NCBI RefSeq assembly: GCF_020667845.1
Contig: NZ_JAFMPQ010000019.1
Span: 32,842 to 96,841, forward strand
Length of the DNA: 64,000 bases
Origin: Cognatishimia sp. F0-27
GTDB lineage: Bacteria; Pseudomonadota; Alphaproteobacteria; Rhodobacterales; Rhodobacteraceae
Direction of reading: 5' to 3'
In this document: piece after piece, positions 391 through 57,230 of the stretch
Layout of the letters: each line of letters starts with the position of its first letter
How positions within the stretch are numbered: position 1 is the first letter of the stretch
Program-made: the position numbers and the translations under genes
Notes under the pieces: generated by a model
The model's database searches: none
What the model was told of the DNA's origin: nothing
Seen by the model: only the letters and a program-made list of their open reading frames with translations

Positions 391-519
391 TTTTGTGTTT
401 CCTCATCAAATCGCCTGGCCGAGACCGCAGCGAACCCAGTTATTTTCCTATCACACTCGCCCTTTGCGGGAAACAAATATCTCCCGAAACACTTAATAAT
501 TGTCACCCACAACCGTCGG

Positions 520-2154
520 TTATCCCGTCGCCGCCCGCGCGGCGACCATTTGGCCATAATCGAGGCGCAGGACCGCATCGGCGCAGTGCAGGTAGGCATC
601 ATCATGCGTGACCGCGATCACGGTTTTGCCCTCGGCGCGCAACTCCGCCATGAGCGTTTCGTAGAAATACCGCCGGAATTGTGGATCCTGATCGGCGGCC
701 CATTCGTCGAAGATGTAGACATCCCTGTCCTCCAGGATCGCAACGATCAGCGCCAGCCGCTTGCGCTGCCCCGTCGACAGCGTTTGGGTCGAAAAGCGCC
801 CATCGGCAAAGGACACCTTGTCGCCCAGTTGCATCTTGTCGATCAGTGCGTCCACCCGCGCCGGATCACTGTCGTGGTAGCCATAAAGCCTGTCGAAAAG
901 GTGAAAATCGCTCATGATCAGCGAAAAGCTGCGACGCAGACGCGGCAGGTCAGCGGTCTCCACCGACCGGCCATTGAGCGTCATGGCGCCGTCCGAGCGC
1001 TGGTAAAGGCCGCAGATCAGCTTGATCAGCGTCGATTTCCCGCTCCCGTTGCCCCCAACCACAAAAAGCACCCTGCCCTTTTCGATGCTCAGATCGATGG
1101 GCCCGATGGCAAAGCCCGCGCTGCCGTCGGGTTCGCGATAGGCGTAGCGCACCCGCGAAAGCGTGAGCCCGTCAAACGGTTCCGGCTCGGCCAAAGGCGC
1201 ACCGGTCACGCTTTCGGGCTCCGCCCCGGCATCGAGTTCGGCTTCGAGCTCGGACAGGCTGGTCAACGCGGCATTGGTCCGCCCGATCACGGGGATGATG
1301 TCCAGAAAACCGGCCAGATACCCGATGATGAACAGCACCACCGCGGTGATTTCCAGCACGTCGAAAGCATAGACATTGGTCATGCGCGGGATCACGAAGA
1401 CAATCGCCGCGATGATGATGTAGAACACCCCCTGGATGATCGCGCGCGACTGGATATAGACGCGGGTCGGGGCTTCGGCCATGGCGCTCGTCTCGGCCAC
1501 CAGCCGGTCATAGGCAGCATGCAGATCGGCGCGGCGCCGGTCGTTGAGCTTGACCTCCTTGAAGCCGAGAAAGGTCTCGGACACCATTTCGGAGATCTGG
1601 CTTTCGCGCGCAATCAGCGTGCGCGCGGCGTTGCGGCTGTCCTCGTTGCGCATGTGCCGGTAGACCGCCACCAGCACCAGCCCGACAAGCACGGAACCGA
1701 AGGCCGCCGGTGAGATGGTGAACAGGTAGGCAAAGCAGAACACCAGCATGAACATGGATTGCAGCCCGTAGACGATGGTGTCAGAGGCCTGGATCACCTG
1801 CCCGATATTGCGCGAACTGCGCGTGATCACGTCGCTCTCGCGCATGGTTTCCACGGAGGATACCCGCGCCTTGAGCAGCTTGTCGACAATGCGCAGCCGT
1901 TGCTCGGTCATGGCATCGTCAAACAGCATCTTGCCGCCGATTTCCGCATGCATCTTCGTATAGAGAAACAGGGTCAGGCACGCGATGAACAGCAGAAATT
2001 GCTGCGTCGCGCTCTCGCTCGAATAAACAGCGGCGGCACCGGCATTGATCAGAGCGACAAGCGCCGCGTTGGCCGCACCGGAAATCAGCGTCAGCACGAC
2101 GATCCACCGCAGCGTGGCGGCATCCTTGGTGCGCAGCAATTGGATCAGGGGCAC
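520..2154 (-). CDS. Cyclic-peptide-exporter-type ABC transporter (fused permease and ATPase)
   Basis: A protein of about 544 residues. The N-terminal half has a six-helix ABC transmembrane domain. The C-terminal half is an ATPase with Walker A GGNGSGKST, signature LSTGQRKRLAL and Walker B VYIFDEWAADQDP. The compact half-transporter, with an insertion between membrane and ATPase parts, resembles the PvdE/SyrD cyclic-peptide transporter family, which exports peptide or polyketide metabolites or their precursors to the periplasm. The frame is open upstream to 2403, but that would overlap the HAD gene. GTG at 2154 is preferred because AAAGGA lies about 10 bases before it and the protein then begins VPLIQLLRTKD, just ahead of the first membrane helix. 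It is the last gene of the PKS operon and the likely product exporter. Confidence 0.85.
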   Translation of the reverse strand: MPLIQLLRTKDAATLRWIVVLTLISGAANAALVALINAGAAAVYSSESATQQFLLFIACLTLFLYTKMHAEIGGKMLFDDAMTEQRLRIVDKLLKARVSSVETMRESDVITRSSRNIGQVIQASDTIVYGLQSMFMLVFCFAYLFTISPAAFGSVLVGLVLVAVYRHMRNEDSRNAARTLIARESQISEMVSETFLGFKEVKLNDRRRADLHAAYDRLVAETSAMAEAPTRVYIQSRAIIQGVFYIIIAAIVFVIPRMTNVYAFDVLEITAVVLFIIGYLAGFLDIIPVIGRTNAALTSLSELEAELDAGAEPESVTGAPLAEPEPFDGLTLSRVRYAYREPDGSAGFAIGPIDLSIEKGRVLFVVGGNGSGKSTLIKLICGLYQRSDGAMTLNGRSVETADLPRLRRSFSLIMSDFHLFDRLYGYHDSDPARVDALIDKMQLGDKVSFADGRFSTQTLSTGQRKRLALIVAILEDRDVYIFDEWAADQDPQFRRYFYETLMAELRAEGKTVIAVTHDDAYLHCADAVLRLDYGQMVAARAATG

Positions 2155-2296
2155 GCGGTTCGTCCTTTTCAGCAGACGCCACGGGGACCGTGCGCCGGGA
2201 GCGTCCTGCGCCGCCCCGGGCGAAGGATGCGGCGCTCGGCGCGGGAATGTGCCGACGCCTCGGGGCATCCGTCGGGCCTCGGTATCGGGCGGCGCT

Positions 2297-3004
2297 TCAC
2301 GCCATTGCCCAAAACTGACCGGTTTCCTGCATCCGATCAATGCTTTGCAGCATCGCGAGGTCAATCTGTGACGCGTCGCGCACGATAAACGGCAACCCGG
2401 CATCGGTCATCTCTGCCTTTTGCCAGCACCAGGGCTCCTGCGACGGCACGCCGATGAAGCCGGTGCCGACGGCCCGCGCATGGGTGGCGGCGAAGTTCAC
2501 ATCGTCGATGAAGAGCGCTTCGGTCGGGGCGACACCAGCGATGTCGTGCACGATTTCCTTCATTCCGGGGCGAAAATCATTGGTGCAGACATAGGCTTCG
2601 AACACATCGGCATGCGCGCCAAGCTCGCGCCGCATGTAATCTTCGTCGAGCCCGCCATAACAGAGCAGCCGGACGGGAAGTCGCGCGAGCAGCGCCAGAA
2701 GCGCCTCCGCCCCGTCAGACAGGCGCAGCGGGTTCTCCGCCAGATAGGCCTCGCGCAGGGCAAAATAGCTCGCCGCCATTTCCTGATGGGTCTTGCCCTG
2801 AAGATCGTCGGGCAGGTCACCATCGAATTGCGAGAGCATGAACTGCACCGCTTCGCGCCGGTTGCGCGAGAGCATCCCGCTTTCGAGCGTGCGGGTGTAT
2901 TCGAGGCCGTAATAGTCGCAGGATTTGCGCAGCAGCGGCGCAAAGGTATCAACCAGCAGCGGGCCGTCGAGGTCAACGGCGATCACCTTGAGCGTGCGAA
3001 GCAT
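2297..3004 (-). CDS. HAD-superfamily phosphatase at the end of the PKS operon
   Basis: 235 residues. HAD motif I is VDLDGPLL, with nucleophile and acid Asp at residues 11 and 13. A Lys lies in the RPGMKEIV segment and motif IV is FIDDVNFA, so the catalytic set is complete. It lacks the acyltransferase part of FkbH-type glyceryl-loading enzymes, so it looks like a small-molecule phosphatase. The start at 3004 has AAAGGA about 10 bases upstream, 15 bases after the PKS stop, so it is cotranscribed. The PKS ends in an AfsA-like domain, a family that condenses a beta-ketoacyl-ACP with dihydroxyacetone phosphate. A phosphatase here would fit removal of phosphate from the released butenolide. That role is inference; the HAD assignment is firm. 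Confidence 0.85.
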   Translation of the reverse strand: MLRTLKVIAVDLDGPLLVDTFAPLLRKSCDYYGLEYTRTLESGMLSRNRREAVQFMLSQFDGDLPDDLQGKTHQEMAASYFALREAYLAENPLRLSDGAEALLALLARLPVRLLCYGGLDEDYMRRELGAHADVFEAYVCTNDFRPGMKEIVHDIAGVAPTEALFIDDVNFAATHARAVGTGFIGVPSQEPWCWQKAEMTDAGLPFIVRDASQIDLAMLQSIDRMQETGQFWAMA

Positions 3005-3019: not shown

Positions 3020-6000
3020 CTAAGTCGTTCGGTTCGGCTGGCGCTGGTCGTCCCAATGCGCCTTGAGCGTTTCGGTTACGCTGATGACACGGCTCGCGAA
3101 GGCGCCGAGCAGCGCGCCCGTATCTGCCCGTTCAAGCACCCCGCGCAGGTTCAGCATCGTGGCCCCGCCCAGCGAGACGGGCAGACAAGGCTCGGTGCGC
3201 AGGAGCACCGGTTCTGCGTCCGACACCGCGCGATCAAGCGAGAGGTCGATCTGTTTGAGCAGGCCAATGGCAGGCGCCTGCGGGCCGGTCTCCGGTGCCA
3301 GCGGCAGCAGCCTTGGCGCCGCTCGGGTGAGCTGGCGGACGGCTTCGGCAAGCACCAGCCCGTCGACACCGTTGCCCGGGCCATTGGCATAGAACGGTGC
3401 CTTGGCCGACAGGCTCAGACGCGCCAGCAGCCCACCCTCCTGCGCCCGCAGCCCCGCCAGCAGCACGTTGGCGGGGTTTGTCTTGTTGACCCAACGCCGG
3501 TTTGTCCTGCGCCCGGCAGGCCAGTCGCCTGATACCGGCGGGGCGACAAACGGGCCAAGCATGCAGACGAGCCGCGCCTCCGCCACCACGCGCCCGTCCT
3601 GGACGACGCGGGCGCGGTATTCGTTTTCGGGGTCGCCCGGAACCTGGCCCGTTTCGACCCGCGCCTGTGCGGACAAGCTGCACAGATTCGGAAACTTGAA
3701 CCGCAGGCTGGTCAGGTGGATCGCCTCCGGCGCCGCTTCGCGATGCCGAAAGAGATGCAGGGCCTTGGTCAGCTGGCACATCGCCTCGGAGAGATGCATG
3801 CCCGAGACATGATCGAGCGGATGGTCGAAGAAGAAAGGATGCGTCTCATCCACCACAAGCTCTGCCCGCGCGGCGAGCGGATCCCGCGTTGTCAGCTGCA
3901 ACCGCGTGATCACGCGGTCCGCCGGGTCGGCCCTGAGCGAGGCGCCATACATGTCGAGCCGCACGGTCGCCCGTTCCGGCTCGGGTTCCTGCGTGGGGCC
4001 CCGGTTTGGCGCGGCAGCGTTGCCCGGCGATGAAGCCGGGTCCGGCGCGTCGGAGACCGGGTTGCGCAGGGCGGCCGGGGCCGGCTCGCCCGCAGCGACG
4101 GGCGCGGGGCTCTCCGAGACAACCGCACAGAGCGCCGCGACGGTTGGCGCTTCGAGCATCGCATTCCCGCGCCCTTCAAGCCCCCTGTCGGGAAGCAGTG
4201 CCACGATCCGACTGGAAATTGTCAGAAGCCCGATGGAGTCGATGCCGATCTCGGCAAAGCCCGCATCCGGTGTGAGCGTGTCCGGTGCAACGGCGAGGAA
4301 ATCGGCGATCACGTCATGCACTGTCCGGTCGCAAGAGCTCAAGAGCTGCGCATGCGCCCCGCTCGGGGTTGGCGACGCCCCCGCCAAGGCGCGCTCGGTC
4401 TCGGCGCGCCCCGTGTCGGCAGGCGTTGTTTCAGTCTGCGCAGGGGCGGTCGGACCAAGGCCAGTCCGATCAAGAGCCCTCCGCTCCGTGTCCGTCTGAT
4501 CCGGGTCGGTGTCATGGAGAAGGGCCTGCTCGGGATCGGTCTGGTCCGAACCGGAGCGCATGCGCGGTGTGCCCTGCGCACCCGACGCGGCTGCGCGTGC
4601 GACCCAGTAGCGCTCCTTGGCGAAGGGATATGTGGGCAGCGCGATGCGACGGGGCGGCATTGGCCCATAAACCGTCTTGGACAGAGCGGACCAGTCAAGG
4701 TCCAGCCCCGACACCCAGGCCCCCAACGGACGCTCCAGCGCGCCGTCCTGCATCCACCCCGCCGCAAGGGTGGCCAGCGCGTCAGCGTCGAGCCAAGGCG
4801 CGACACGCGTCTCCACGGGATCCCCCCACGAGACCCGGTGCGCCTGCTTTCCGGCACGCAGCGCGCGCAGCGTGTCGAGAAAACCGCACCAGTCCTGCGC
4901 AACAAAGCCAACACGGAACGGATGGGCATCGCGCCCCACCTGCAGCGTATGGGCCACGCGGTGCAGCAAGCCGTGGTCGCCGCTCTCCGCCCGCTCCTCG
5001 GCCCAATCGCACAGCCGGGCAATTGCCGCGTCGCGCTGCTGGCGCGTGCGGGCAGAGAGCATGATCAACGCCGGGCCGACCGGCGCGGGGGCGACGGGAG
5101 GCGCGCTTGCCTCCTCGACCAGCACATGGGCGTTGACCCCGCCAAAGCCGAAGGAACTGACCCCCGCAAGGCGTGGCATGGGACTCCCATCCGCATCGGT
5201 GGGTTGGGACCAGGGCTGTGTCTCTTGCACGAGGAAGAAAGGCGAGTCTTCGAGATGGACAAGCGGGTTCACGCTGTCGCAATGCAGATTGCCGGCCAGG
5301 GTGGCATGGCGCAGCTGCAGCACCACCTTGATCAAGCCGGCGATCCCCGCCGCCAGTTCCAGATGACCGATATGCGATTTGAGCGCCCCGATGGCGCAGC
5401 GGTTCCGACTGGAGGCATCGGCCGGAATGCCAAAGGCGTCCTTCAGGGCATCGATCTCGATCGGATCGCCCAGCGCGGTGCCGGTGCCATGCGCTTCGAT
5501 GCAGGTGATGGTTTCGGCCCGGACACCGGCCTTCGCAAAGACCTCCTTGAGCAGGGCGGATTGAGAGGCCGGGTTGGGGGCGGTGAGCGAGGCCGCACGT
5601 CCGGCATGCCGCACCCCGGAGCCACGGATCACCGCGAGCACGTCATCGCCATCGGCCAGAGCGTCGGTCAGACGCTTGACCGCCACGAGGCCGATCCCCT
5701 CGCCGCGCGCATAGCCATCGGCACCGGCGGCAAAACTGCGGCAACGCCCGCCCCGGGACAACATGCCCGCAGCGGCAAAGGCCACATGCAGGGTTTCATC
5801 CGGCATGGCGTTGACCCCGCCTGCGATGACGAGGTCGCTTTCCCCCGTGCGCAGCGACTCCAATCCGCGATGCAGCGCAACCAGAGAACTGGAACAGGCG
5901 GTTTCGATCGGTTCGCTCGGGCCACGCAGATCGAGCATGTGGCTGATACGGTTCGGGCCGACGGAGGCGACATTGCCGGTCACCCAGCGCGGATCGGTGG

Positions 6001-9000
6001 TGCGCCCGGCGCGCGCAACCATGGCGCTGTAGGAGGAGGCGCTCAGTCCGACAAACAGGCCCGTCTTGCTGCCCGCAAGGCTGCGGGGGGCGTGGCCACT
6101 TGCTTCGAGAACGGACCAGACATGCACCATGAGAAGGCGTTGCTGCGGATCCATCACCTCGGCCTCGCCGGGAGAAAGACCGAAGAAGGCCGGATCAAAC
6201 GCATCGAGATCGTCGATGAACCCGCCCCAATGCACATTGGTGCGGCCGGGCTGCACGCGCGGATCGCCGTCGATCGCCTGCCAGTCCCAGCGGTCGGGCG
6301 GCGGCCGGGTGATGGCATCGCGCCCGCAACACAGATTGTCCCAGAACGCCTCCAGCGTCGGCGCGCCGGGAAAGGCCCCGCTCATCCCGATGATGGCAAA
6401 GCCGTCTGGCGCAGGGCGCTGCTGCGTCGCAGGCATGACAGCGGCCCGCGACAGTTGCGGATCGGGCCGGCGCTCTGCCCGCGCGGACGGCTCGGGCGCG
6501 GACGGTTGGGTGGCTGACGGTTGGGAGGCTGACGGATGAGGCGCGGAGGGATGGGGCGCGAAACGCCGGGGTTCGGACCCGGCGCCGACCCCGGAATCCG
6601 CTGGCGGTTCTTGAGGCGTGATAACAGCTACGGCCCGCGCTATGTGTTCGGCGATCTGGGAGATCGTGGGCATGGCGTAGAAGGCGCTGGCGGCGATATC
6701 GACACGGAAAGCCTGAGCGATGGCACCGGCAAGCTCGGTATAGCTGATGGAATCGAGACCAAACGCACTCAGCTCTTCGGTCGGGTCGATGTCATCGGGT
6801 GAGAGTTTCAGCAAATCCGCGATCATGCCGCAAAGCGCATCCGCTACGGCATCGGAATCGGGCGCCGCGGTCGGGCGCGAAGGCGTCGGCCTTGCGGCTT
6901 CTATCGGAGTCGCCACCGCACCCGCCGCGGCGTGGGTCACGGCCGGGGAAAGCCGTGCGGCCAGGGCGCCCAGTGTCGGACATTCGAAAAAGACGGTCGG
7001 GGAGAGGTCGACGGCAAGCGTGCCATGCACGCGCGTGGAAAACTCCACGAGGCTGATCGAATCGAGACCGTATTCGGCGAAATCGGCATCTGGATCGATC
7101 TCTTCGGGCGGAACGGCGGTGAGGTCGGCGACAATGGCGGTCAAGGCCTCGGTGACGGTGCGCCTATCGAGACGGGTGCCGGGTTCTGGCTGTTCGCTCG
7201 GTTCGGGCATCAGGCTCTGCGTCTGTTCCCTCGCGGTGCCCGACGCGTCTGTCGCCTGCGGCACCCATTGGGCAAGCCGATCCGGCGCTCCCTTGAGCAC
7301 GACCACCTGCGCGGCGCCAGTGGCCCAGGCGCGGTCCAGCGCATGGAACCCGTCCGCCGTTGCCAACGGGCTCAGCCCGAACCGGGTTTCCTGCATGCGC
7401 AAGGTCGGCCCATCGACCTGCATGCCACCCTGCGCCCAGAAAGGCCAATTGATGCTGAGCGCGCGGCCGGGGCGCCCGGCCGACGCGTTCCGTTGCGCGA
7501 CGAACCCGTCCATCCAGCCATTGGCGCAGGCATAGTCGGCCTGCCCGGGATTGCCGAACCGCGCGGCGACGGATGACAGGCAGAAAAAGAGCTTCAAGGG
7601 CATCGCGGCAGTGGCGGCATCGAGCGCGCGCGTGCCGGCAATCTTGGGGGCCAGCACGGCACGCATGGCCTTATCGCCGCGCGCGGTCAGCAACCCGTCA
7701 TCGGTCAGGCCGGCCGCGTGCACAACACCGGTGAGCACGCCAAACCGATCCGCGAGCCCGCCAATGGTGGCGTCGAGCGCGCCCTTGTCACAGACGTCGC
7801 AAGCGGCGTAGTGCGCCCGCGCGCCAAGCGCCTCAAGCTCCGCCAGAAGTGTCCGGTGGCCCTCACCGAGCTGCGCCCGCCCGAGGAGGAGGAGTGTCGC
7901 GCCTTGACTGCGCTGCGCGATATCGCGCGCAAAAAGCGCACCGAGACCGCCCGCCCCGCCCGTGATGAGGTAGACGCCAGCCTCATGCCACGGACACTGC
8001 CCGTCCGCCGTTGGCACCGTGTCAAACCGGACCGTTTCAAGCCCGCCCTGCCCGGCGCGCAGCGTACAAAGATCGGGGTGAGCGCGCGCGGCATTCAAAA
8101 GCGCCACGGCATCCGGTGTGGCCATGCCGGAGGGGATTTCCACGCATTGGGCGAGGGTTTGTGGCCATTCGGCACGCACCGTTTGCATCAAAGCGCCAAG
8201 CGCCTGCGTCAGGGCCGGGTCGTCCACATCCGTCACGATTTGCACCCCGCCGAGCGCGCGGCCGCCCTCGCGCACCGCGTCGCGCAACATGTCCCGCACA
8301 AGGCAGAGCATCGGCGCGGGATCGCTTGCCAGAGCGCCGGGGTCGGCGCGCGCGATATCGGTGCCCGCTTTTGCCGGACCGGAGAGCCCCGCGGCGGTCG
8401 CGTCAATCAGCCGATGGACGCCAGACGGTGCCTCGCTCCCCCGGAGAGGCACCCTGCACCAGACCGGACGATAGAGCGCAACGCCATGCGCGCGACGGAG
8501 ATCGGCATTGATCTGCTCCGACGGAAATCGGTGCCTGCCACTGAGCGCGGGCGCGGCAGGATGAGCGGCGGCACGCGGCGCAGAGCCGGGCAATGGCGCG
8601 GTCACAAACCCCGTGAGAGCCACGCATACACGGCCCGCGTCATCGCACAGGAACACATCGGCCCCGCCGCCCGCCCCGCGGGCGCGCACGATCACCGTGA
8701 CCTGCCGCGGGACGGGCGCAAAGATGTCGACCGCCCCGATGCGCACCGGAACGGACGGTTTGAGCGGACCCGCCCCGTCGGCAAAGCTCAGGGCGAGCGT
8801 GCTTTGCAAGGCCGCGTCAAGGATGTTTGGCGGCAGCGCCATATTCGGGCCAAGGCGCGCATCAGGCACCGATTGGCGCACCGTCGCCACCACCAGATCC
8901 GGGCTGACGGACGCGTCGGTGATGGCCTTGTGGGTTGGACCGTAATCCAGCCCGAGCGTTTCGAACCGCGCGTAGATCTGCTCGGGTGCAACGCTCTGGG

Positions 9001-12000
9001 TTGCCTCCGCCCGGAGCGCCTCAATCGGCATGGCTGGAGCCGCCGTGCCGGGCGCGCCCCTTACACCCTGGCCGCGCGCATGCACGATCCGCTTGCCGTG
9101 CTGCTCCGAAACGATCGCGAATTCCACACCCTCCGCTGCGGGAGACAGGCACACCCGCAATCCCGCCGCCAAGGCCTTCAGATCGACCAGGCGTTCGAAT
9201 GTCACGGCGCGCAGGGTAAGCCCGTCACCGCCGCCCTGTGCCGCGATGGCCGCCCGCGCCAGTTCAAGATGTGCGGCACCCGGCAGCACGGGCTGGCCCT
9301 GCAGCATATGGTCGGCCACGAAGAAAACCTCCGCATCGATGATGACCGGATAGACGGTGGTGCCCCCCTCCTGAACAGGCGTGCCCAGCAGCGTGAGCCC
9401 GGTCTCATGCGCCATTGTCTCCGAAGGCGCGTGGGTATCTGGTCCGGGTCTGGGCGCTGTGACGACTTCGGGAATGACCCAATGGCGATCAAGGCGCATG
9501 GCGCTGCCCGGCATGGCAAGCCGCCGTGGCAAGGGTCCCGACCGGTATGCCAACCATGCCACCGCCGCGCCCGCGCACCAGGCCCGTGCGAGGCTCTCGG
9601 GGGTCGCGCCCGGCGTCGGGGCGGCGGGGGCATCGCGGCGCGCGGCTTTCGCCTCGTAAACCGACGCGTCATCGCCTGCCAGCCAATCCGCCAGTTTGCG
9701 GCGCAGGTCATCGACATCCGTCGCGACAACGGCAAGGCGGTGACGGCGCGCTGCGCGTCCGGTCTGAAGCGTATGGGCAATGTCACGCAGTGCGGCGTTG
9801 CGCGCCTCCGCTCCATCGAGCCAATGGACGAGATCGGCAACACTCTGGCGCAACCGGTCGCGAGAGAGCGCCGAAACAACGACGGCCTCCGGCGTCGCGG
9901 GCTGATGCCGGGCAGGATCTTGCCCCCCAACGGGGGGTTCCTCAAGCACCACGTGGGCATTGACGCCTCCGAAACCAAAGGAGCTGACCCCCGCGCGGCG
10001 CGGCACCTCGTTGCCCCGCAGATCGTGCAGACGCGGCCATGATCGGGTGCTGTCGATCAAGACAAAGGGGCTGTTCGCGGTCTCGATGAGCGGGTTGACC
10101 CGCGTGCGGTGCAAGTCTCCGATCAGGGTGGCGTGCCGCATCTGCAGCACTGTCTTGACCAGACCGGCCAGACCAGCGGCCATTTCCGTGTGGCCGATAT
10201 GCGTCTTGACCGAGGACAGCGCGCAGCGATGTGGCGCGACGGTCCGGACGCGGCCCTCCGCGGCTTGCGCAAAGCCGCGGCACAGCCCGTCAAATTCCAC
10301 CGGATCGCCCAGCGGCGTACCGGTGCCATGCGCCTCGATGGCGGTGATCGTTGCCGGATCGACGCCCGACTGGCGCAGGGCGTCGGCAATGACCGCGCCC
10401 TGAGAGACGGCGTTCGGCGCAAAGAGCGACACGCTGCGCCCGCCGTGATTGATGGCCGAGCCCCGGATCACCGCCAACACGGGCTGCCGGTCGGCCTGCG
10501 CGGCGGCCAGCGGCCGCAGCAGCAGAGCGCCGGTGGCCTCGGCCCGGACATAGCCGCTTGCGCCATCGGAAAAAGCCATGCACCGGCCTTTTTCCGACAA
10601 CATGCCCGCGCGGGCAAAGCTGATATGCGCATTGGGTGTGAGGATCGTGTTCACGGCGCCGATGATCGCCGCGTGAGCGCCTGCGCGGATCGCCTCGACA
10701 GCCTTGTGCAAGGCGACGAGACTGCTTGAACAGGCGGTCTCGACCGGCTCGGAAGGCCCGTGCAGGTCGAGCAGCGCGCTGATCCGGTTCGGCGCAATGG
10801 AACCGACCATGCCATTGGCGGTGCGTTCCTCGAGCACGATCCCGGCCTGCGCGGCGCGCGCCGCATAGTCACTGGCCGCGGTGGCGAGATAGACGGCGGT
10901 GTTTGTCCCCGCAAGGCTCTCCGGTGACAGGCCGGAGGCCTCGATGGCCTTCCAGACATGGGTCATCAGCAGCCGCTGATGCGGGTCCATCAGCTCTGCA
11001 TCGCGGGGAGAGATCCCGAAGAACATCGGGTCAAACCCCGCAAGGTCGTCAAGAAAGCCGCCCCAGCGCACATTGGTCTTGCCCGGCTCAGTCCCGGGGT
11101 CGCCCGCGATGGCGCGCCAATCCCAGCGATCGGGCGGGATCTCGGAAATTCCGTCCCGGCCCCGCTGCAGGTTGGCCCAGAAACTGTCGATATCGGGCGC
11201 GCCGGGAAAAGCCGCGCTCATCCCGACAATCGCAACGCGCCCATCGTTTGACGGCGCGGCGGATCCGGCTACGATCGCAGGGGCGGCAAACGGCTCGGCA
11301 ATCGGTGCGGGAACGGGAGCGGCGGCAAGCGGCTCCGCAATTGATGCGGGATCGGGAGCGGCGGCAAACGGCTCCGCAATTGATGCGGGATCGGGAGCGG
11401 CGGCAAACGGCTCCGCAATTGATGCGGGATCGGGAGCGGCGGCGCGTGTCTGCGGCACCTGTGCGCCGAGGTGATCGGCAACCGCGTCCAGCGTGGCGAA
11501 AGAAAAGAAGATATCCGGCGTGACGGGGATTCCGAAGCGCCGGGTGCACTTCTCGGCCAGATCCGTGAAGGAGATCGAGTCGAAGCCGTAATCCACCATC
11601 GGCTGCTCTGCGGACACTTCGGCGGGATCGATACGCAGCGTCTGCGCCACGAGATCGAGGAGCCCATCGCGGATCGCGGATGCCTCTGCACTTTGTTTCT
11701 CCGCCTCAAACGGTGCTGTAACGGGCTGACCGCGGGGATTGTCCCGCGTTTCGCGCGAAGAGGCTGGCATCGGTGCAGCATCGCGCATTGGCCCCGAGAC
11801 CGCCCCGCCATCGAGAGTTTCCGCAATGCGCCGAGGGTCGCCAAACCCTACGATGGCCTGCGCACCACCGGAGGCGGCGATGGTCTCGAGCGCGTCCAGC
11901 CCCGCGCCCGCGGGCATCGGAGCCAGCCCGTAATCGCGCCACATCGCGGGGCCTGCGCCCTCCGGAAGCGCCATGCCGCCCTCCGCCCAGAAAGGCCAAT

Positions 12001-15000
12001 TGACGGACAGGCTACGCCCTGCGCGCCCTTGTGCCGCGCGGGCGGTCATCGCGCCGTCCAGCCAACCATTGGCAAATGCGTAATCGAGTTGACCGGCATT
12101 GCCGGTCAGTCCAGCCAGCGAAGACGTGCACAGGAACAGGGTCAGCGGATCTTTGGCGGTGACCGCATCGAGGGCTTCGAGACCGGCGATCTTGACGCCC
12201 AGCACGCGCGCCGCATCGGCGGGGGATTTGCGCAGCACGGATTGGTCGTTCAGCACGCCTGCGGCATGGATCACGCCGGTGATCGGACCATGCGCCCTGC
12301 GGATCTCGGCAACCACGCGGGCGAGCGCGTCGTGATCCGTCACATCCACGGCGTGATAGTCGAGGCGCCCGGCGACGCGGTCCGCCAGACGGTCGAGCCC
12401 CTTGGGCGCGGTCGAGCGCCCAAGCAGCGCCACCCGCGCCCCGGCCTGCAAAACAGCCTCTGCCAGCCGCTGTCCGACACCCCCGGCGCCACCGGAGACA
12501 AGGACGACGCCAGAGCCCGGCCAGAACGGCGCGGCTACAGCCTCAGAGCCGGGCACATCGAGCGCCGCGATGCGCCGTGTGGTGCGTTGACCGGCGCGAT
12601 ACCGGATGATCCGGTCGTCGCTTTGCGCGTCGGCTCTCAGGGTTTCGCCAGTGATGGCGTCATCGCTTTCGATGAGCTGGACGCGGCACCGGGGTAGGTC
12701 TTGTGCGATGGACCCGGCCGCACCGGCAAGCGCCGCAAGACAAGCCGGCGTGGCTCCACCGGAGAGCACAAGCTGGATCAGATCAGGCGGGTTTGGCGCC
12801 GCCCAGAGTGCCTGCACCTGCAAGATCAGCCGTCCGAGCAGCGTTGCGGCCTCGTCGGCCGTGCGCGGAGGGACAGCACTCAGCACATGGTCGGCCTCAA
12901 CGCCTGCCCCATCGCCGGGCACCCCCACCGTCAACACGGCGCTGCGCGGCGCGTCGTGCACGCGACGCCGCTCCGTCACAGGCCAGACCACATCAAACAG
13001 CGCCAGCCCATGCGACATGCCCGGCGCCTCTGGTGCGCCACCCGGCGCCGCGGGAACACCCCAGAAGCGCGTCCGCGCAAACGGGTAGAGCGGGAGCGCG
13101 ACGCGGCGCGGGGCAGCGCCGCTCGGCGCGGGCCAGACCACCGCCTCTCCGGCGCACCACCGGCGCGTGGCGTCCCCGAGCGTGTCTTCCGTCGGGACTG
13201 ACCCGTCCGCTTCTCCCGGCACCGGACGGCCCGCTGCGATGGCACGCAAACCGTCGACGGCATGGACACGGTCGCGGGCCACAAAGCCCGCGCGTTCGGA
13301 CAGGGCCTCGCGTCCGGCGCGCAGCGTGAACGCAATGTCACGAAGCGCGGCCGTCCCCGCCTCAAGACAGGCGGCAAGGTCACCCGCGATGGTCCTGAGC
13401 TGGTCCCGGGACGCGGCGGAAAGAACAAGCGCTTCCGGCTCCTGCACGGGCTCGCGCGCCGGATCGGCCCCGAGGCGCGCGGGGGCGTCTTCGAGCACCA
13501 CATGGGCATTGGCCCCACCGGCGCCAAAGGAACTGATCCCGGCGCGGCGGGGTGTGCCCTGCGCGGGCCACGCCACGCAGTCTTGCGGCACCTCGAACGG
13601 GGTGTCTTCGATACTCAAGCGCGGATTGAGAACGGCGGAATGCAGGCTTGGCACGATGGTCTCGCGCTTCATCTGCAAAAGCACCTTGGTCAGCCCGGCA
13701 ATGCCCGCCGCGCTCTCGCAATGGCCGAGGTTGGACTTGATCGAGCCGACGTGACAGCCCGGATTGCCCGCCAATGCCCGCGCAAGACCGGCAATCTCGA
13801 TCGGATCGCCCAGCGACGTGCCGGTGCCATGCGCCTCGACATAGCGCAGCGACGCCGGATCCACCGCCGCGTCACGCAATGCCGCGCTGATCACGGCGGC
13901 CTGTGCGGCAGGGTCCGGCACGGTATATCCATTGCTGCGCCCGCCATGATTGAGGGCCGACCCCTTGAGCACGGCCCAGATCGCATCGCCATCGGCGCGC
14001 GCCGCATCCAACGGTTTGAGCACCACCGCGCCCACCCCTTCGGAGGGCACGTAGCCATCCCCGCCCTCTCCAAAGCTGGTGCAACGCCCCGTGGTGGACT
14101 CGAAGCCTCCGCGGCCCATCATCAGGTATTTGTTGGGATGCAGCGTGAGATTGACGCCACCGGCAATCGCGGTGGTGCAGTCCCCGTTTCGGATTGCGCG
14201 CATGGCGAGATGCAGCGCCGAGAGCGAGGCAGAGCACATGCTGTCCACAGCGAGGCTGGGGCCGCGAAAGTCAAAGAGCCAGGACACCCGATTGGCGATG
14301 GAGGCAGGGCTTCCCGACAGGGCGACCGGGTTGCCCCGCAGCGTCTCTTCCACGCCAAGAAGCTGATATTCCTCATACATCACGCCAGCAAACACCCCAA
14401 CATCCCCCATCTCGCGGAGGGATTGCGGCGTGTGTCCTGCGTTTTGCATCGCGTGGTAGACGGTTTCGACAAAGAGCCGTTCCTGCGGATCGGCCTGCTC
14501 CGCGTCAGCGGGCAGAATCCCGAAGAACCCCGCATCGAAAGCATCCACATCATCGAGGAACCCGCCCCAGCGGCTGCGGGTCTTGCCCGGCGTGCGCGTG
14601 GGCGCGTAATGGGGCGCATGATCCCAGCGCGTGGACGGGATCTCGCTGACGCAATCCTCTCCGCGACGCAACACCTCCCAAAGGGCATCAAGATCGGGGG
14701 CCTGCGGATAGCGCCCCGCCACGCCGATGATCGCGATATCCTTCGACGGGGCGTCGCGACGCGCCGCCGCTTGAGCGGGTGCGACGGCGCGGTCCGTAGC
14801 GGTCCGGGACGCCGCAGCCGCTACGGCGGAGCGGGCGGCAGAAGGCGGCCCGGCAAAGGGCGGAGGGGTGTGGGGGGGCGCGAGATCCAGGCGGGGCAGC
14901 GTTTCGAGCTGCGCCGCCAGCGCCCGCAGCGAGCGGTGCTCGTAGAACAGCGTGGCTGAGAGCGTGCCGAACACCGGCGCGAGCCGATCACAAAGCCGCA

Positions 15001-18000
15001 GGATCATCACCGAGTCGAGCCCGTAGCCGTCAAGCGGCGCATCGAGATCGATCTGTGCGCGCTCCAGCTTGAGCGTCTCGCAGAGCGCCGCCGTGAGCAC
15101 CGCCTGCACGGTCTCCCGCCCATCCTCTGACGACGGCTCAGGGCGTGCATCGGGCGCAGCCTCACGCTCGGCAGTCGGGGCCGGTTTGCTCCATGCCTCG
15201 AAATCAGAGCGGGCATCGGCGCGGTCCACGGACAGCGCCGCCTCGGTGGTCACATCGGCCGTGTCTTCTCGCAACCAGAAACTGTCCTGCGCGAAGGGAT
15301 AGCCCGGCAAGGCCACGCGGCGCGGTTTGTCCGCCGCCCAGAACGCGGACCAGTCAGGATCGATCCCGCGCAACCAGAGATCGGCGACGCGCCGCCAGTC
15401 CCGAGCGGTGGCCCATCGCTGCATCATCGCCTGCATGTCGGCATCGGCTCCGGATGCTTGCACGGGCAGCGGCGCCTCGGCTTCTGCCCGCGCATGGACG
15501 CGCAGCTGTGCGCACGCATCCGCCAGCGTTTCGGCCACAAAAGCGAGGCGGCACGCCATGGGATCCCGACCGGTCTGCAGGCAAAAGGCCAGCGCGCGCA
15601 AGGATGGCGGATCGCTTTCCAGCGCAGCACACAGATCCGCTGCCCTGTCGCGCAGCGCCCGCCCGTCACGGGCCGACAGCACGATGAGTTCCGCCCCCAT
15701 CGGCGCGACAGGATCGTCCGGAAGCGCCGGCGGGTCGGACAGGATGACATGCGCATTGGCACCACCGGCGCCAAAGGAGCTGATACCGGCAAGGCGCGCG
15801 CCTGCATCGCTGCGAGGCCAGCGTTGCACGTTGCGCGCCAGAGAGACCGGCCCGTGCTCGAGGTCGATTTCGGGGTTGACCGCGTCCAGATGCAGCCCCG
15901 GCACGATCGTCTCATGACGCATTTGCAGCAAGACCTTGGTCAAACCGGCAATCCCCGCCGCGCTTTCGCAATGGCCGATATTGGATTTCACCGAACCCAC
16001 CGTCAGGCTTGGCGCCTTGCCAAAGGCGCGCGCCAGTCCTGCAATCTCGATGGGATCCCCAAGCGGCGTTCCCGTGCCATGCGCCTCGACATAGCTGACC
16101 GCTTCCGGCGACACCGCCGCATCGGACAGCGCAGCACCGATCACCTTGGCATGCGCCGCGGGGCTGGGGGCGGTATAGCTGCGGGTGCGTCCCCCGCTGT
16201 TGAGCGCCGTGCCGAGGATCACCCCGTGCACCGCATCGCCATCAGCGATGGCCCGGGACAGCGGTTTGAGCAGCACCGCCCCGACGCCTTCGCCGCTGAC
16301 CATGCCGTCCGCCATTTCCGCAAAGGGGCGCGCCCGTCCGGTCGGCGACAACATGCCCAGATCAGCGAGCGTTTCGAGGTGTCGGGGATGCGCAACCACA
16401 TTGACCCCACCGGCGATGGCGGTGTCGCAACGCCGCGCGCGCAAGGCCTCCACCGCAAGATGGATCGCGGTCAGCGAAGACGAACACGCCGTATCCACGG
16501 CGAGGCTCGGTCCCGTGAGATCGAGCAGGTAGGACACACGGTTGGCAATGGACCAGAAGGCCGCACGCGTCGGGTAGTGACCGTTCATGGCGCCAACGAA
16601 GACGCCGGTTTCCTGACCCTTGCCGAAGCGCTCGGGCGCGTAGCCGGCCTGTTCGATGACATTGTGCGCTATTTGCAGGAAAAGCCGCTCCTGCGGGTCC
16701 ATGCGTTCCGCATCCGCCGGGGCGATACGGAAGAACAGCGGGTCAAACCGGTCGACCCCGTCGAGAAAGCCCGCCGGGCGCGGAATGCCGTTGGACTCCG
16801 CGGGCCACGGGCGCCCGTCGCTCGGCGCATCGGAAACGCAATCACGCCCGGAACGAAGCGCATCCCAGAACGCGGGCAAATCCGCGGCGTCGGCATAGCG
16901 GCCAGCCAGCCCGATGATGGCGATGTCGCGGTCCTCGGCGGCGACCGCGCCCGCCTGAACAGGGCTGGCCATGGGCTCGAAGGACGCTTGGGCCTGTCCA
17001 GAGACCGGCACATGTTCAGCTTCGGCCGCGCTTGTGGCAGCGGGGGTCTCGGCGGCAGGCCCCTGCGTGATGTCCGGCGCCGGGGGCACGGGTGGCGCGC
17101 TTTGCGGCGCCGGGTCTTGCGGCGACGAACGGCCCAGCGCTTCGCGCAGATGCTCCGGCGCGGTTTCAAGAAGGTGATCTGCCAGCGCCCCGACGCTGTC
17201 CATTTCGAACAGGAGCGTTGAGTTGATCTGCGGGAAATCCGCACGCATCCGGTTGACGATCTGGAGCACGAGGATTGAATCGACGCCGTAGCGGGCAAGC
17301 GAGACGGACTCCTCCATACGGGATGCCGGCACGTCGATGGCCTCGGCGATCACACCGCGCAACCAGTCGCAGGCCTTGGCACGATCCACGGGTTGATCAG
17401 CAGCGTCCGCGGGCAACGGCCCTGACGACGGATGGGGCGGGGTTTCGTCAACCGGGACAGCGGTCACGGAAGGCATGGTCGCAGCGGGCATGGTCGCGGC
17501 AATCGCGGCGACCGGCTGGCGCGGCAGCACCGTCCGGTGAGGCGGCGCCGCGCGCGCTTGCCGGATCACCCCGTCACTGCGCGCGCCGATGATCTGCTGA
17601 CCAAGCGGAAGCGCGGCCCGTGTGGGAAAAGACACCGTGTCGAAGCCCTCGATCGCCAACGCGCTGCGCCACATCTCCGGCGAAAGCGCCGGCGTGCCCT
17701 GAAGCCGCATATCGGCGTCGTCAAAAGCCCACCAGCCATCAAGCAAGCCGAAGGTCACATGGCTGAACAGCACGTTTTCGGTCAACTCGTTGATCAGGAT
17801 CAGCCCGCCATGACCCAGCGTTGCCTTCACATGGCGCAGGCTCGTCAGGATATCCGGCGTGGCATGCAACACGTTGGTGGCAATCGCGATGTCGTAGGCG
17901 CCCTCTGCGATGCCCTGGCCGGCCGGGTCTCTCCCGATGTCGAACACCCCTGTCTCAAGATAGGGTGTCGTCGGACCAAAACGCTGCTTGGCATGGATGA

Positions 18001-21000
18001 GGAAGGAGCGTGACAGGTCGGTATACCTGTATTCGGCGATATGCGCGGCATAGGGTGCGAGCCGCGCAAAGACCCGGTTTGCTGTCCCTCCCGTGCCGGC
18101 GCCGATCTCGATCAGGCGCAGACGCACGCCGGGCTCCGCCGCCACGCGCTGCGTCACAGCCTGTTCCAACACGTCGCACAGCGCCGCGTTGAAATAGTCC
18201 ACGACACGATTGCCGTTATAGACCCCGCTCACGAGGTCGAGCGCGCCGCCCGGGAACATCACCGCCGTGGCCTCCGCCTGCCCGGTCAGAATGTCGGGCA
18301 ACGCCCGCAGCATCGCATCGGCAAGGGCAACATGGGGACCAAGGTCCGCATCCGCGCGCAGCGGCGCGACGGCCTGATCCCACCGGCCAAGCGCCGAGTC
18401 CAGGGACGGGATCGGCAGCGCGCCAAGCCGATACGCGCCGTCGAGATGGCCCGCGCGTTGCAGCGCGCGCCCGGTCTCTGCGATCCAGCGCGGATAAATC
18501 GCCGGGGCGCCCGCGGGGGCGGCATCGCGCAGCCCCGTGGCATCGATCACCCCGCATGCCTGCAACGAGGCTGCAACGATAGCCGCCATATCGGCATCGA
18601 ACCGCGTCATCTGCTGCCCCACATGTCCGACGATCTCGGCTACTCTGGTGTCCTGCGGCGGGAGGTGAAGTGCGTCGGTCATATCGGGCAGCGGCTTTGC
18701 CAGGTGGGCGGCAAGATCCGGCCATTCCCCGGTCAGGGCGCCGCTTTCATCGAGGCTGACAAGCGCGGCCTGACCGAAGTCTGACAGGAGCAGCGCATCT
18801 AGCGCCTGCATCGCCGATCGCGCGTCGAGCCCGGCGAGCCCATGTGCGGCCATTCGGTCGCGGTACGCCTCTTGCGCGACGATGCCCACGCTGTCCCAAT
18901 AGCCCCAGTTCACAATCGTGACCGGAACACCCATCCGCGCCCCTGCCTGACATGCGAAATGGTCCGCAAAGGTGCAGCCAGCGGCATAGTTGCCTTGACC
19001 CGGCATGCGCGCAAAAGACTGCACGGAAGAAAAGAACAGGACGAAATCGGGCTTGTCCTGCGCGAAGGTGTCAAAGAGCGCCACGGTGGTGTCGATCTTG
19101 GCCGATGCGGCGCGTTCCAGCGTATCGGCATCCATGCGCGCAACGGTGGCATCGGCAAGCGTGATCGCGGAATGCACCACGCCGGAAATGCGCCTGAACC
19201 GCGCAAGGATCTCGCCCCGCGCGGCTGCCATGGCAGCGGGATTGCGGGCATCGGCCTGAATGTAGACAGGTCTTGGACCGGTCGCGGCGATGCGGTCCTG
19301 TGCGGCGGCAATGGTGGCATCGACCGGACTGCGCCCGAGCCAGACAACCTGCGCGCCCGCGTTTTCCACGACATGCTCCGTCCAGATCTGGCCAACGCCA
19401 CCCGCACCGCCGATCACCACGTGCACACCACCCGGTGCCGTGGCACCCGACGGCGTGGCGAGGCGATCGAGGCTCAGCAGGCCCTGACAGAGCCAGACCC
19501 CGCCGCGATGAGCAAAGACCGGCGCGTCGAAGGGCGCGGGCAGCGCAAAAACGGTATCAAGCGGCAGAGGGGTTTCGCCGTCCCCATCGGCGATGCGTAC
19601 CGTCCAATGTGGGTATTCCCGCGCCAAAGCACCAAACAAGCCGGCCAGTCCCGCCGCCACCGCAGGACCGGTCTCGCCCCGGCCGGTCTCGAAGGTGCCA
19701 TCGGTCCAGATCAACCACGTGAGCGGCCGCGCCTCACCTCCTGCGCGGATGATGCCCTGAACGAGATCGAGCGCATCATGCAGCAAATGCTTTGCGCGCG
19801 TCGCGACATCCCGCGTTGTCAGGTCATCGTCTCCTGCGTCCGGGCGCAGCACGATCAACGGCGCGTCGGTCATGGCCTGCATCGGCTCGGCCAATCTGCG
19901 CGCGGCGGGCCATTGTGCCCGCAGCGCGTCCAGTACCTCGGCATCGCCCCCATGAAGGGACACGCTGTCAAAGCGCGGCGTAGCATCTACGGGTGTGAGC
20001 TTGCGCCAATGCGGGACAGCGCAGGTCAGCGGCGCGTCGTCCGGCAAAGCACGGGCGGTGACACCGCGGATCTGGACCAAAGGCGCGCCCGGACGGCTTT
20101 CCGCAAAGAGATCGGCATGCAGATGTGCCAGAGCGCCGTCGGCGAGCCTCCGGGGCGCGTGCAAAACGGCGCGCATGACACGGCACATCGGTCCGTGCAG
20201 GCGGATCAGATCTATGCTGAAAGGAACCGTGCCGGACTGGGTGGTTGCATCGAAACAGGCGGAGGCCTGAATGGCCGCGTCAAGCAAGACCGGATCAACG
20301 GGCATGACCGGGCCGTCAGGACGCGTGAGGTCAAACGCCGCTGCGGTTGTGTCGCCGCGCCCGGCGCCCAGCGCGCGCAGAGCGGGGCCATGGACGATCC
20401 CGACCACTTGCAAGCGCGCGTAGCAGGTCTCGGCTGTCATGGCTGCGCCCGCACCGGGCGGGACCAGCGGCGGAACAGCTGTCTGCGCTGCCGGTCCGAT
20501 CTCCCCCTGGGCGAGGCGCGTGCCATGCGCATGGACCGCAAAGTGGGCACCCCGGTCATGCCGGTCGAATTGCACGGTCAGCGCCGCCAGCGCAGCACTG
20601 TCAATCGGTTTGATCCACGTCAGGTCGGTGATGTCGAGCGGCTGGTCGGGATCGCTGCCCGACAGCGCTCGCCATGCAGCACTGGCGATCGCAGGCACGG
20701 TCATCCCCGGAAGCATCGCGGCACCCGCCACCTGATGGTCGCGCATCAAGGGGTTGTCTGCGGGGATGATCACCGCAAAGCGCGTTTCATCGAGCGGCGC
20801 AAGCGAGAAAAGCGCCGGCGCGGTTGCGTCCGTCGAGGGGATCGGTCGGGTGGCGTCCTGCGGCAGGGGAGCCGTGGCCCAATGCGTGTCGCGCTCGAAC
20901 GGCGTGCGCGGCAGCGGAATGCGCCTGGGCCTGTCGGCGGCGAAAACGCGGACTCCTTGCGGCATCCCGCCCGAGAGATACGCGCGCACCGCCTCGGCCC

Positions 21001-37901: not shown

Positions 37902-38174
37902 TCAGCCAGTCACGGGCATGGTGCCAGCACTCTGTTGCAGGCACTCAACCATGCGCTCCAGAGACACCATGACGTTGCCGAGGATGGCATCATCATCAAA
38001 CGCGACGCCGAACTCGGTTTGCAGGAACTCCACAAGCTGCACATAGCCGAAACTGTCCATGATACCGGCTTCGAACAGGTTGGTGTCATCCTCGAAATCA
38101 ACGCCATGCTGAACAAGGAACTGGTCTTCGACATAGGCGCGGATCTTGAGGGCTTGGGGCGAGGCATCAGGCAT
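37902..38174 (-). CDS. Free-standing acyl carrier protein
   Basis: 90 residues, four-helix ACP type, with phosphopantetheine site GIMDSFGYVQL (DSF rather than the usual DSL) and acidic helix II (EFLQTEFGVAFDDD). The ATG overlaps the end of the AT-AT-ER gene by 8 bases and asnB follows after 3 bases. The first KS of the PKS has no loading ACP, so this protein is the natural carrier of the malonamyl starter, made by AT loading followed by the amidotransferase. The longer open frame up to 38447 is the reverse-frame shadow of the ER domain. Confidence 0.9.
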   Translation of the reverse strand: MPDASPQALKIRAYVEDQFLVQHGVDFEDDTNLFEAGIMDSFGYVQLVEFLQTEFGVAFDDDAILGNVMVSLERMVECLQQSAGTMPVTG

Positions 38175-41655: not shown

Positions 41656-42161
41656 GACAGCGGCACCTCGATACACGTAAAACGTGCAAGTGCGGAGGGT
41701 TCAGCCATCTCGGAGAAAGGCCGGGGGCAAGAGATCGAGCCGGGGAGAGAATCGGGAAAAAACATACAACACCGTCAATTACTTAGACCACGCAAGCGCT
41801 ATTCGAACGTCGGCAAGCACGTCATCCACGTTTAGAGACGCACAACCTTAACGTCAATTTTTATTCACTTATACTCGCTAAGTTTGTTCATTCTCTACCT
41901 GTGGCGGCCAGATATTAATCATCCTAAAATTGTGGACTCTTCATTGACAGAAGGCCGCACAACCCCGTAGCGTTGACCCAAAGTCACCCGGTTTGCCTGA
42001 GACCGGGTCGAAAAGATCGGGATGATCGAAAATCCCACAGCGCTCTGGCGGATCGGCATCGCAAAAGCGGCTTTCGACATTCAGGTGCCAAGGCAGGTCA
42101 AAAAGCGGATCAACAAAACACCCTGCGGGTCCCCACGCAAAGGTCAGACAAGGGAACGACC
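41656..42161. other. Divergent intergenic region between PKS operon and methyltransferase gene
   Basis: 506 bases without a convincing gene. The centre (about 41760-41945) is clearly AT-rich compared with the flanks, as expected for a control region serving the leftward PKS operon and the rightward methyltransferase gene. The long frame starting at 41973 is only an upstream extension of the methyltransferase. No palindrome strong enough to name an operator was seen. Confidence 0.7.
41829..41857 (-). promoter_or_regulatory. Possible sigma70-type promoter of the PKS operon
   Basis: Read on the minus strand, TTGACG (41857-41852) and TAAACG (41834-41829) are separated by 17 bases, inside the AT-rich part of the divergent region and about 175 bases before the AT-AT-ER start. 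The -35 match is good and the -10 match is weak. Other hexamer pairs in this AT-rich stretch are possible. Confidence 0.3.
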
Positions 42162-54956: not shown

Positions 54957-55294
54957 GTGGGAGACCATTTTCTGCCGGGAAAGAAAAGTGGAAAGCGAAG
55001 CGAATGTCGCCAAAAAGGTCGTCTAATCAGCGTGATGCGGCTCCTTGCCGCGCCCGGATTTCCGCGCGCGATGTGCGATGAGCCTCCCCTTCCCGCGCCC
55101 CGCCAGCGGACCGCGCGCCGCGTGATGCCGCAAAAACGCAGGCTAGAAACGCAGCCCCCAAGGCCCAGACGCCCGTTCGCGCTCGCAAGCGCCGGGCACC
55201 GCCAAGCACAGCCGAACGTGGGGCGGCCCCATATGCACCTATCGCGCGACGCGGCGCGAACGGCGCTGCGACCGACGCGGCGGGGTCGGTCATC
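54957..55294. other. Divergent intergenic region between cobU and cobD
   Basis: 338 GC-rich bases. A minus-strand frame at 55027-55296 could encode 89 residues with one hydrophobic stretch, but it is Ala/Arg-rich, lacks a clear ribosome binding site and resembles no family I know. It is therefore not called. No B12 box was seen here. Confidence 0.55.
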
Positions 55295-56233: not shown

Positions 56234-56239
56234 ACCGCC

Positions 56240-57226: not shown

Positions 57227-57230
57227 GCGA

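What the first reader, a model, noticed from the sequence alone, without database searches (positions are those of the whole stretch)
3020..4150. PKS ends in an AfsA-type double hotdog domain instead of a thioesterase
The C-terminal 300 residues hold two hotdog repeats. The first contains HPFFFDHPLDHVSGMHLSEA and the second NKTNPANVLL, both matching AfsA (PF03756-type) proteins that condense a beta-ketoacyl-ACP with dihydroxyacetone phosphate. The preceding KS-ACP module has no reductive domain and would present exactly a beta-ketoacyl thioester. A terminal AfsA domain has, to my recollection, been described for the Burkholderia glutarimide-butenolide gladiofungin/gladiostatin. The same ending here on a differently composed assembly line suggests a new butenolide-terminated polyketide.
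Basis: partly seen in the sequence, partly recalled or inferred. Interest (0 to 1): 0.93.

Follow-up and report, generated by a model that had tools for sequence, protein, structure and literature searches.

The report
Shortened gladiofungin-type butenolide assembly line
This giant bacterial enzyme ends in an AfsA-type domain, has no detected thioesterase, and is predicted to cut its product loose by fusing it to a small sugar phosphate; the gene cluster is a shortened relative of the one that makes the antifungal gladiofungin and would likely make a new, smaller version of it.

Summary
The last 310 residues of the 7,880-aa PKS (window 3023-3952, minus) are an AfsA double hotdog (PF03756, E=3.1e-22, two repeats) behind a KS-ACP module without reductive domains. 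Pfam shows no thioesterase in either PKS. The line is not independent of gladiofungin/gladiostatin: the starter genes, the glutarimide module and the KSs of modules 1-6 pair one to one with those of a B. gladioli genome. It differs in layout: one KS-DH-KR-ACP module fewer than the published line, no DH in module 5, tandem ACPs in module 7, and no GdsA- or GlaG-type gene on its contig. Four other lines, seen only in part, share the short layout. Counting modules gives a C25 glutarimide-butenolide, an inference with a caveat. New here: an unusual HAD protein is the next gene after the AfsA domain in 4 of 4 loci read, including a Paenibacillus PKS, which makes it the better candidate for the dephosphorylation left open in print. 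All chemistry is inferred; nothing was assayed.

The parts
3023..3952 (-). AfsA-type double hotdog release domain (residues 7571-7880 of the PKS)
   Evidence: PF03756 E=3.1e-22, two stretches; repeats at 3566-3931 and 3320-3490; double hotdog model
4124..4318 (-). ACP of terminal module 8
   Evidence: own ACP HMM, motif IDSIGLL
5276..6400 (-). KS of terminal module 8; no reductive domain found between it and the ACP
   Evidence: Cys-His-His present
6644..11242 (-). module 7: KS-DH-KR-ACP-ACP
11471..14743 (-). module 6: KS-KR-ACP
   Evidence: KS groups with gla module 6
14912..16933 (-). module 5: KS-ACP; lacks the DH that B. gladioli module 5 has
17174..22534 (-). module 4: KS-DH-KR-MT-ACP
22733..25027 (-). 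module 3: KS-ACP
25163..28578 (-). module 2: KS (end of the first PKS) then KR-ACP (start of the second)
   Evidence: same split as in gla
28861..35916 (-). glutarimide module 1: KS-DH-KR-ACP-KS-B-ACP
   Evidence: KS-B segment 53% identical to the B. gladioli protein
35928..37898 (-). asparagine-synthase-type amidotransferase (malonamyl starter)
   Evidence: PF00733/PF13537; 57% to gla
37902..38165 (-). discrete starter ACP (true start inferred to be inside the longer ORF 37902-38447)
   Evidence: PF00550; 41% to gla
38167..41676 (-). trans-acting AT-AT-ER protein
   Evidence: PF00698 and TIGR02814 PfaD above cut-off; 48% to gla
2297..3004 (-). HAD-fold protein directly after the AfsA domain; predicted phosphobutenolide phosphatase
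   Evidence: homologs; PF00702 below cut-off; beta-phosphoglucomutase-like model pLDDT 90; next gene after AfsA in 4 of 4 loci (window)
520..2403 (-). ABC exporter, also next to the G1177 cluster; true start probably inside the ORF
   Evidence: TIGR01194 332 bits, cut-off 286; 53% to L015:4402-6051

Best explanation
The PKS ends in an AfsA-type double hotdog domain that is predicted to release the finished chain by condensing its beta-ketoacyl-ACP with dihydroxyacetone phosphate, and the line as a whole is an eight-module relative of the gladiofungin/gladiostatin synthase that would likely make a smaller glutarimide-butenolide. Shown by sequence: the AT-AT-ER, ACP and amidotransferase starter genes; the KS-DH-KR-ACP-KS-B-ACP glutarimide block; one-to-one KS pairing with B. 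gladioli through module 6; a bare KS-ACP before AfsA; and a HAD-type gene directly downstream. Inferred: malonamate is loaded, extended and branched to a glutarimide; modules 2-8 add seven C2 units with one methyl; module 8 leaves a beta-keto thioester; AfsA transfers the chain to DHAP and an intramolecular condensation closes a phosphorylated butenolide; the HAD protein removes the phosphate. By the carbon rule that returns C27 for the published eight extension modules the product would be C25, for example C25H35NO8 ([M-H]- 476.229) if modules 5-7 are fully reduced, or a keto or hydroxy form if module 5 is not.
For: AfsA match far above cut-off with two repeats. Double hotdog fold. About 31% identity over the ACP-AfsA end to the B. 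gladioli domain, with FFDHPLDHVSG, NK....NVLL and EA.RQ kept in 6 of 6 PKS ends aligned. The gladiostatin ACP-AfsA didomain condenses 3-ketothioesters with DHAP in vitro (PMC7756379, parts 1-3 of 4 read), and deletion within the AfsA domain abolishes gladiofungin (PMC7756420, parts 1-2 of 3 read). Same gene order and strand as in the B. gladioli genome G790. KS tree with position-matched groups for modules 1-6. HAD gene next to AfsA in 4 of 4 loci (window). The carbon rule gives C27 for eight extension modules.
Against: No product or activity data. AfsA identity to the assayed kind is low (31%). The double hotdog fold is shared with thioesterases and dehydratases, and thioesterases lead the Foldseek list. 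The domain misses the ScbA/BarX equivalog cut-off (78 against 200 bits). The carbon rule has a counter-example if the G790 assembly is right: that cluster shows nine extension KSs, which gives C29, while B. gladioli makes C27; I treat its near-identical extra module as recent or artefact, but module number alone may not fix the length. Module 5 has neither DH nor KR and the contig lacks a GlaG-type reductase, so the oxidation pattern is uncertain. The EAMxQ motif of the first repeat is not kept in the B. gladioli domain. The HAD lacks the usual motif II Ser/Thr.
Confidence: 0.8

Rival explanations
1. The terminal double hotdog acts as a hydrolytic thioesterase and the line releases a beta-keto acid (then a methyl ketone).
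For: Thioesterases are among the closest solved folds. A methyl ketone is described as a likely gladiostatin degradation product (PMC7756379).
Against: The only Pfam match of the 380-aa end is AfsA, and it aligns along its length with the B. gladioli AfsA end, a type shown in vitro to use DHAP. A conserved HAD gene next door would have no evident job in plain hydrolysis.
Confidence: 0.07
2. The cluster makes gladiofungin itself or another chain length than the module count predicts: one module acts twice, or one is skipped.
For: The line is otherwise orthologous; the gladiostatin paper describes non-linear programming; tandem ACPs in module 7 could support iteration; G790 as assembled has one extension KS more than its C27 product needs.
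Against: The short layout recurs in four other lines as far as they are seen. Module 5 also lacks its DH and no GlaG-type gene is on the contig.
Confidence: 0.18
3. The cluster is silent or degenerate and makes nothing.
For: Such clusters are often silent (the B. gladioli ATCC 10248 one was, PMC10574677, passages). It is rare: only the window's own genome among 385 of the class sample.
Against: The 7,880-aa and 3,093-aa frames are open. KS Cys-His-His residues are present in 9 of 9 KSs. Divergent homologs keep the same layout, which speaks for selection.
Confidence: 0.08
4. The HAD protein is not a phosphatase of the released butenolide but works on the C3 unit or rearranges the ring.
For: Invariant YGG at the motif II position and Arg-Pro at motif III in 71 of 71 proteins; Asn for the nucleophile Asp in 13 of 70. 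Gladiostatin needs rearrangement as well as dephosphorylation (PMC7756379).
Against: Motif I DxD and motif IV DD are present here, and the fold is that of phosphatases and beta-phosphoglucomutase.
Confidence: 0.3

Closest known systems
Gladiofungin / gladiostatin PKS (gla/gds) of Burkholderia gladioli
   Same: Starter genes, glutarimide block, module 2-4 and 6 core domains, terminal KS-ACP-AfsA, the HAD gene, and gene order
   Different: One KS-DH-KR-ACP module fewer than published (7 against 8 extension modules after module 1); module 5 without DH; module 7 with two ACPs; no upstream histidine phosphatase and no GlaG-type reductase on the contig; AfsA end only 31% identical
PKS of Antarctobacter jejuensis (P0003) and unnamed P0004, P0005
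   Same: The same order of KS, KR, DH, MT, ACP and AfsA domains in the second PKS protein; AfsA end 57%, 40% and 40% identical
   Different: Only the second PKS protein was seen; the module-7 DH of P0004 and P0005 lacks the HxxxGxxxxP motif; no product named in the searches made
Stand-alone AfsA / ScbA-type proteins of Streptomyces
   Same: PF03756; conserved FFFDHP and DHV
   Different: Here fused to a PKS; below the ScbA/BarX equivalog cut-off; apart from the 3 short proteins in the tree (support 100/99)
AfsA-terminated PKS of Paenibacillus maysiensis (L003)
   Same: AfsA end followed directly by the same HAD family (38% identity)
   Different: No significant amidotransferase or AT-ER match on the 14.6 kb held of a 23.3-kb contig; a different, unidentified line

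Membership tests
AfsA family (PF03756) | Pfam match above the curated cut-off, two repeats | tested here: met
   79.5 bits against 24, two stretches
AfsA family (PF03756) | double hotdog fold | tested here: met
AfsA family (PF03756) | condensation of a beta-ketoacyl thioester with DHAP | not testable with these tools
   no assay possible; shown for the gladiostatin domain (PMC7756379)
ScbA/BarX gamma-butyrolactone synthases (NF041195) | NCBIfam equivalog cut-off | tested here: not met
   78 bits against 200
Glutarimide trans-AT PKS | amidotransferase, discrete ACP and AT-ER starter genes | tested here: met
Glutarimide trans-AT PKS | KS-DH-KR-ACP-KS-B-ACP first module | tested here: met
Gladiofungin/gladiostatin-type line | glutarimide block plus terminal KS-ACP-AfsA | tested here: met
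Gladiofungin/gladiostatin-type line | position-matched KS domains | tested here: met
   modules 1-6 one to one; modules 7-8 as a group
Gladiofungin/gladiostatin cluster proper | published nine-module layout with module-5 DH | tested here: not met
   eight modules, module 5 KS-ACP
Gladiofungin/gladiostatin cluster proper | GdsA-type phosphatase and GlaG-type reductase in the cluster | tested here: not met
   no match on contig C45; best genome hits 31% on C65 and 45% on C79
Gladiofungin/gladiostatin cluster proper | glutarimide-butenolide product | not testable with these tools
   needs chemistry
HAD phosphatases (window 2297-3004) | PF00702 cut-off | tested here: not met
   18 bits against 26.4
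HAD phosphatases (window 2297-3004) | HAD core fold with helical cap | tested here: met
HAD phosphatases (window 2297-3004) | motif II Ser/Thr (motif definition recalled) | tested here: not met
   Tyr-Gly-Gly in 71 of 71 aligned; the strand before it ends there in the model

The most novel reading that the evidence does not exclude
AfsA plus this HAD is a portable two-part release cassette used by PKSs in more than one phylum: AfsA hands the chain to DHAP, and the HAD, with its altered motif II, expels the phosphate by elimination and so turns the 3-hydroxymethyl intermediate into the 4-hydroxy-3-methylbutenolide warhead. This roseobacter-type lineage uses it on a shortened line to make an undescribed C25 glutarimide-butenolide.
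Probability: 0.25. Interest if true: 0.7.

Novelty: new variant of a known kind. Interest (0 to 1): 0.52.

Why it matters
AfsA-type release of a modular PKS was reported in 2020 and, in the papers I saw, its characterised products come from one species. This is a divergent, rearranged version with a predicted different chain length. The comparison also points to which enzyme finishes the butenolide: the gladiostatin paper left two phosphatase candidates, and only the HAD gene is kept here and in the other loci read. That makes the step directly testable with two small proteins, and it gives a search handle for further AfsA-terminated lines.

Tried and rejected
An independent, new assembly line with a borrowed AfsA end: rejected, because the KSs pair position by position with B. 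gladioli.

Thioesterase release: Foldseek ranks thioesterases first, but sequence homology and Pfam favour AfsA.

A canonical gamma-butyrolactone synthase: below the ScbA/BarX cut-off.

Solved structures for AfsA by sequence: nothing significant (one row, E=0.93).

Plasmids: no match to the ACP-AfsA end. Genome contigs by peptide patterns: one confirmed locus, Paenibacillus L003; the B. gladioli genome was missed by that route and was reached. The protein search scored only the 642 candidates sharing most words, so it may have missed distant ends.

AfsA tree: ten rows (eight of them known PKS ends, two unnamed) separate from three short proteins, but branching inside is mostly unresolved, so a single recruitment of AfsA is not shown.

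ScbA active-site residues are recalled only. PMC5735094 was searched for them and gave no residue list (passages), so they are not used as evidence.

A second Burkholderia-genus hit (G841, L006; E=1.8e-4, one stop inside the match) was left out of every count except the 2 of 65 and not read further.

HAD relatives outside the four loci (for example in Streptomyces, Streptococcus mutans and Teredinibacter) were not checked for an AfsA neighbour, so the pairing may not be exclusive.

Full report
OBSERVATION. The window holds a minus-strand run of genes ending in a 7,880-aa PKS (3020-26662) preceded by a 3,093-aa PKS (26659-35940). The last 310 residues of the larger protein match PF03756 (AfsA) with 79.5 bits against a cut-off of 24, E=3.1e-22, in two stretches. 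They are the only PF03756 matches in the 4.9-Mb genome. The quoted motifs are there. The AlphaFold model (9 sequences, mean pLDDT 78) shows two hotdog units. Among solved structures, VIA-align puts a trypanosome mitoribosome-assembly protein first, then double hotdog thioesterases and PKS dehydratases; Foldseek puts thioesterases first. This supports the fold but does not decide the chemistry. In a control, the B. gladioli ACP-AfsA end matches the real C-terminus at E=5.8e-47 and none of 200 shuffled versions at E<=10.

ARCHITECTURE. HMMs seeded with the window's own domains and iterated over the window's two PKSs and three homologs give: first PKS KS-DH-KR-ACP / KS-B-ACP / KS; second PKS KR-ACP / KS-ACP / KS-DH-KR-MT-ACP / KS-ACP / KS-KR-ACP / KS-DH-KR-ACP-ACP / KS-ACP-AfsA. 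The B domain is seen as a partial DH-type match and by 53% identity of the KS-B segment to the B. gladioli protein. Nine of nine KSs keep Cys-His-His. No thioesterase is among the Pfam matches. Upstream lie an asparagine-synthase-type amidotransferase, a discrete ACP and an AT-AT-ER protein: the glutarimide starter set described in PMC7756379.

COMPARISON WITH GLADIOFUNGIN. The protein search returned no protein named Burkholderia and the genome-contig scan only a Paenibacillus locus. I reached the genus through a 16S pattern and searched 65 genomes: 2 matched, G790 strongly and G841 weakly. Its cluster has the same order and strand. Best-segment identities to the window are 57% amidotransferase, 41% ACP, 48% AT-AT-ER and 53% KS-B, and 31% for the ACP-AfsA end. 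In a tree of 38 KSs each window KS of modules 1a, 1b, 2, 3, 4, 5 and 6 falls in a starred group with the G790 KS of the same position; two window KSs (of modules 1a and 2) have long branches. The KSs of modules 7 and 8 fall with the group of late G790 modules. Differences: G790 module 5 has a DH (584 aa between KS and ACP), the window has none (264 aa). The window has one KS-DH-KR module before the end. From the text of PMC7756379 (figures not held) I read two in the published line (modules 7 and 8). G790 shows three, two of them 99.8% identical over 1,086 aa, with a frame break between the two ORFs. The published GlaE residue number E10080 in the AfsA region (PMC7756420) fits a protein about one module shorter than the G790 frames together, so I use the published count; that is inference.

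HOW COMMON. The window's ACP-AfsA end finds only the window's own genome: 1 of 61 in the relatives search and 1 of 385 in the class sample (in the rows shown at most 4 candidates per genome were scored). The protein search gave, besides the window's own protein, Antarctobacter jejuensis (57%) and two unnamed proteins (39%); these three second PKS proteins have the short layout, their first PKS was not seen, and the module-7 DH of the two unnamed ones lacks the HxxxGxxxxP motif. A family-wide search with the HAD protein found 2 of 394 genomes, the own one and G1177. G1177 also has an AfsA PKS; its visible part is module 4 end / KS-ACP / KS-KR-ACP / KS-DH-ACP-ACP-ACP / KS-ACP-AfsA, the contig ending there. 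So four further lines, each seen in part, share the short run of modules; one of them has no module-7 KR. The tool groups it in the phylum but not the class of G712, the genome I take for Burkholderia, and its nearest named PKS relative is in Roseobacteraceae. That it is a roseobacter is inference.

PRODUCT. The rule 7 + 2 x modules + 1 methyl + 3 (DHAP) gives C27 for eight extension modules, the carbon number of gladiofungin, and C25 for the seven here. Against it: G790 as assembled has nine extension KSs, which gives C29. Gladiofungin B, enriched in the glaG mutant, keeps a double bond at C14-C15 (PMC7756420). The window lacks both the module-5 DH and a GlaG-type gene on the contig (best genome hit 45% on another contig), so that part of the chain may be keto or hydroxy instead of saturated. 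This is inference.

KNOWN OR NEW. AfsA release is known (PMC7756420, PMC7756379). AfsA-ended PKSs were already noted in Gloeobacter, Paenibacillus and Ruminiclostridium (PMC7756420), and a partial gladiofungin-like cluster in Massilia (PMC10213415, passages). Searches (listings, capped at 8 to 30 papers) showed me no paper on such a cluster in a roseobacter, nor on the AfsA-HAD pairing across lines; papers outside the open library and supplements were not searched. PMC7930024 (passages) reports glutarimide blocks in several genera and does not mention AfsA in its main text.

VERDICT. A real, well supported AfsA ending on a shortened gladiofungin-type line: a new variant of a known kind. The added value is the conserved HAD partner and the layout comparison.

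Noticed in passing
G790:C4 (L007, L008), ORFs 2659406-2685910 and 2650776-2659916: Two PKS module stretches of 1,086 aa are 99.8% identical and a frame break lies between the two ORFs; one KS more than the published line, possibly recent duplication or assembly artefact. Left as it is.
   Followed up: partly
window 1-2403 and contig positions before the window (L011:17501-19705): ABC exporter (TIGR01194), DUF697, Band_7 and Peripla_BP_6 genes follow the HAD gene, and homologs in the same order lie next to the G1177 AfsA PKS; a Band_7 homolog was found in only 2 of 41 relatives, own included. Role unknown.
   Followed up: partly
P0064-P0067, P0069, P0073-P0077, P0079-P0081: 13 of 70 relatives of the HAD protein have Asn in place of the nucleophile Asp, many of them named Streptomyces.
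   Followed up: no
P0071 (Streptococcus mutans), P0070 (Teredinibacter haidensis): HAD relatives with the YGG and FRPG motifs in bacteria not known to me for AfsA PKSs; neighbours not checked.
   Followed up: no
L015 (G1177:C75) residues 2040-3197 of the PKS: Module 7 there is KS-DH-ACP-ACP-ACP, without a detected KR.
   Followed up: no
P0004 and P0005, module 7: The DH match of module 7 lacks the HxxxGxxxxP motif in both.
   Followed up: no
window 41973-43280 (+): A methyltransferase-domain ORF divergent from the AT-AT-ER gene, with an N-terminal half that has no Pfam match.
   Followed up: no
window 43348-45090 (-): A 580-aa protein with 19 RTX calcium-binding repeat stretches.
   Followed up: no
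window 53420-58763 (-): Cobalamin-type genes (PF02277 phosphoribosyltransferase, CobB/CobQ-like PF07685) to the right of the cluster.
   Followed up: no
G841:C3:1299695-1300087 (L006): A weak partial AfsA match (E=1.8e-4, 29%) with one in-frame stop in another genome of the Burkholderia-type genus; not read further.
   Followed up: no
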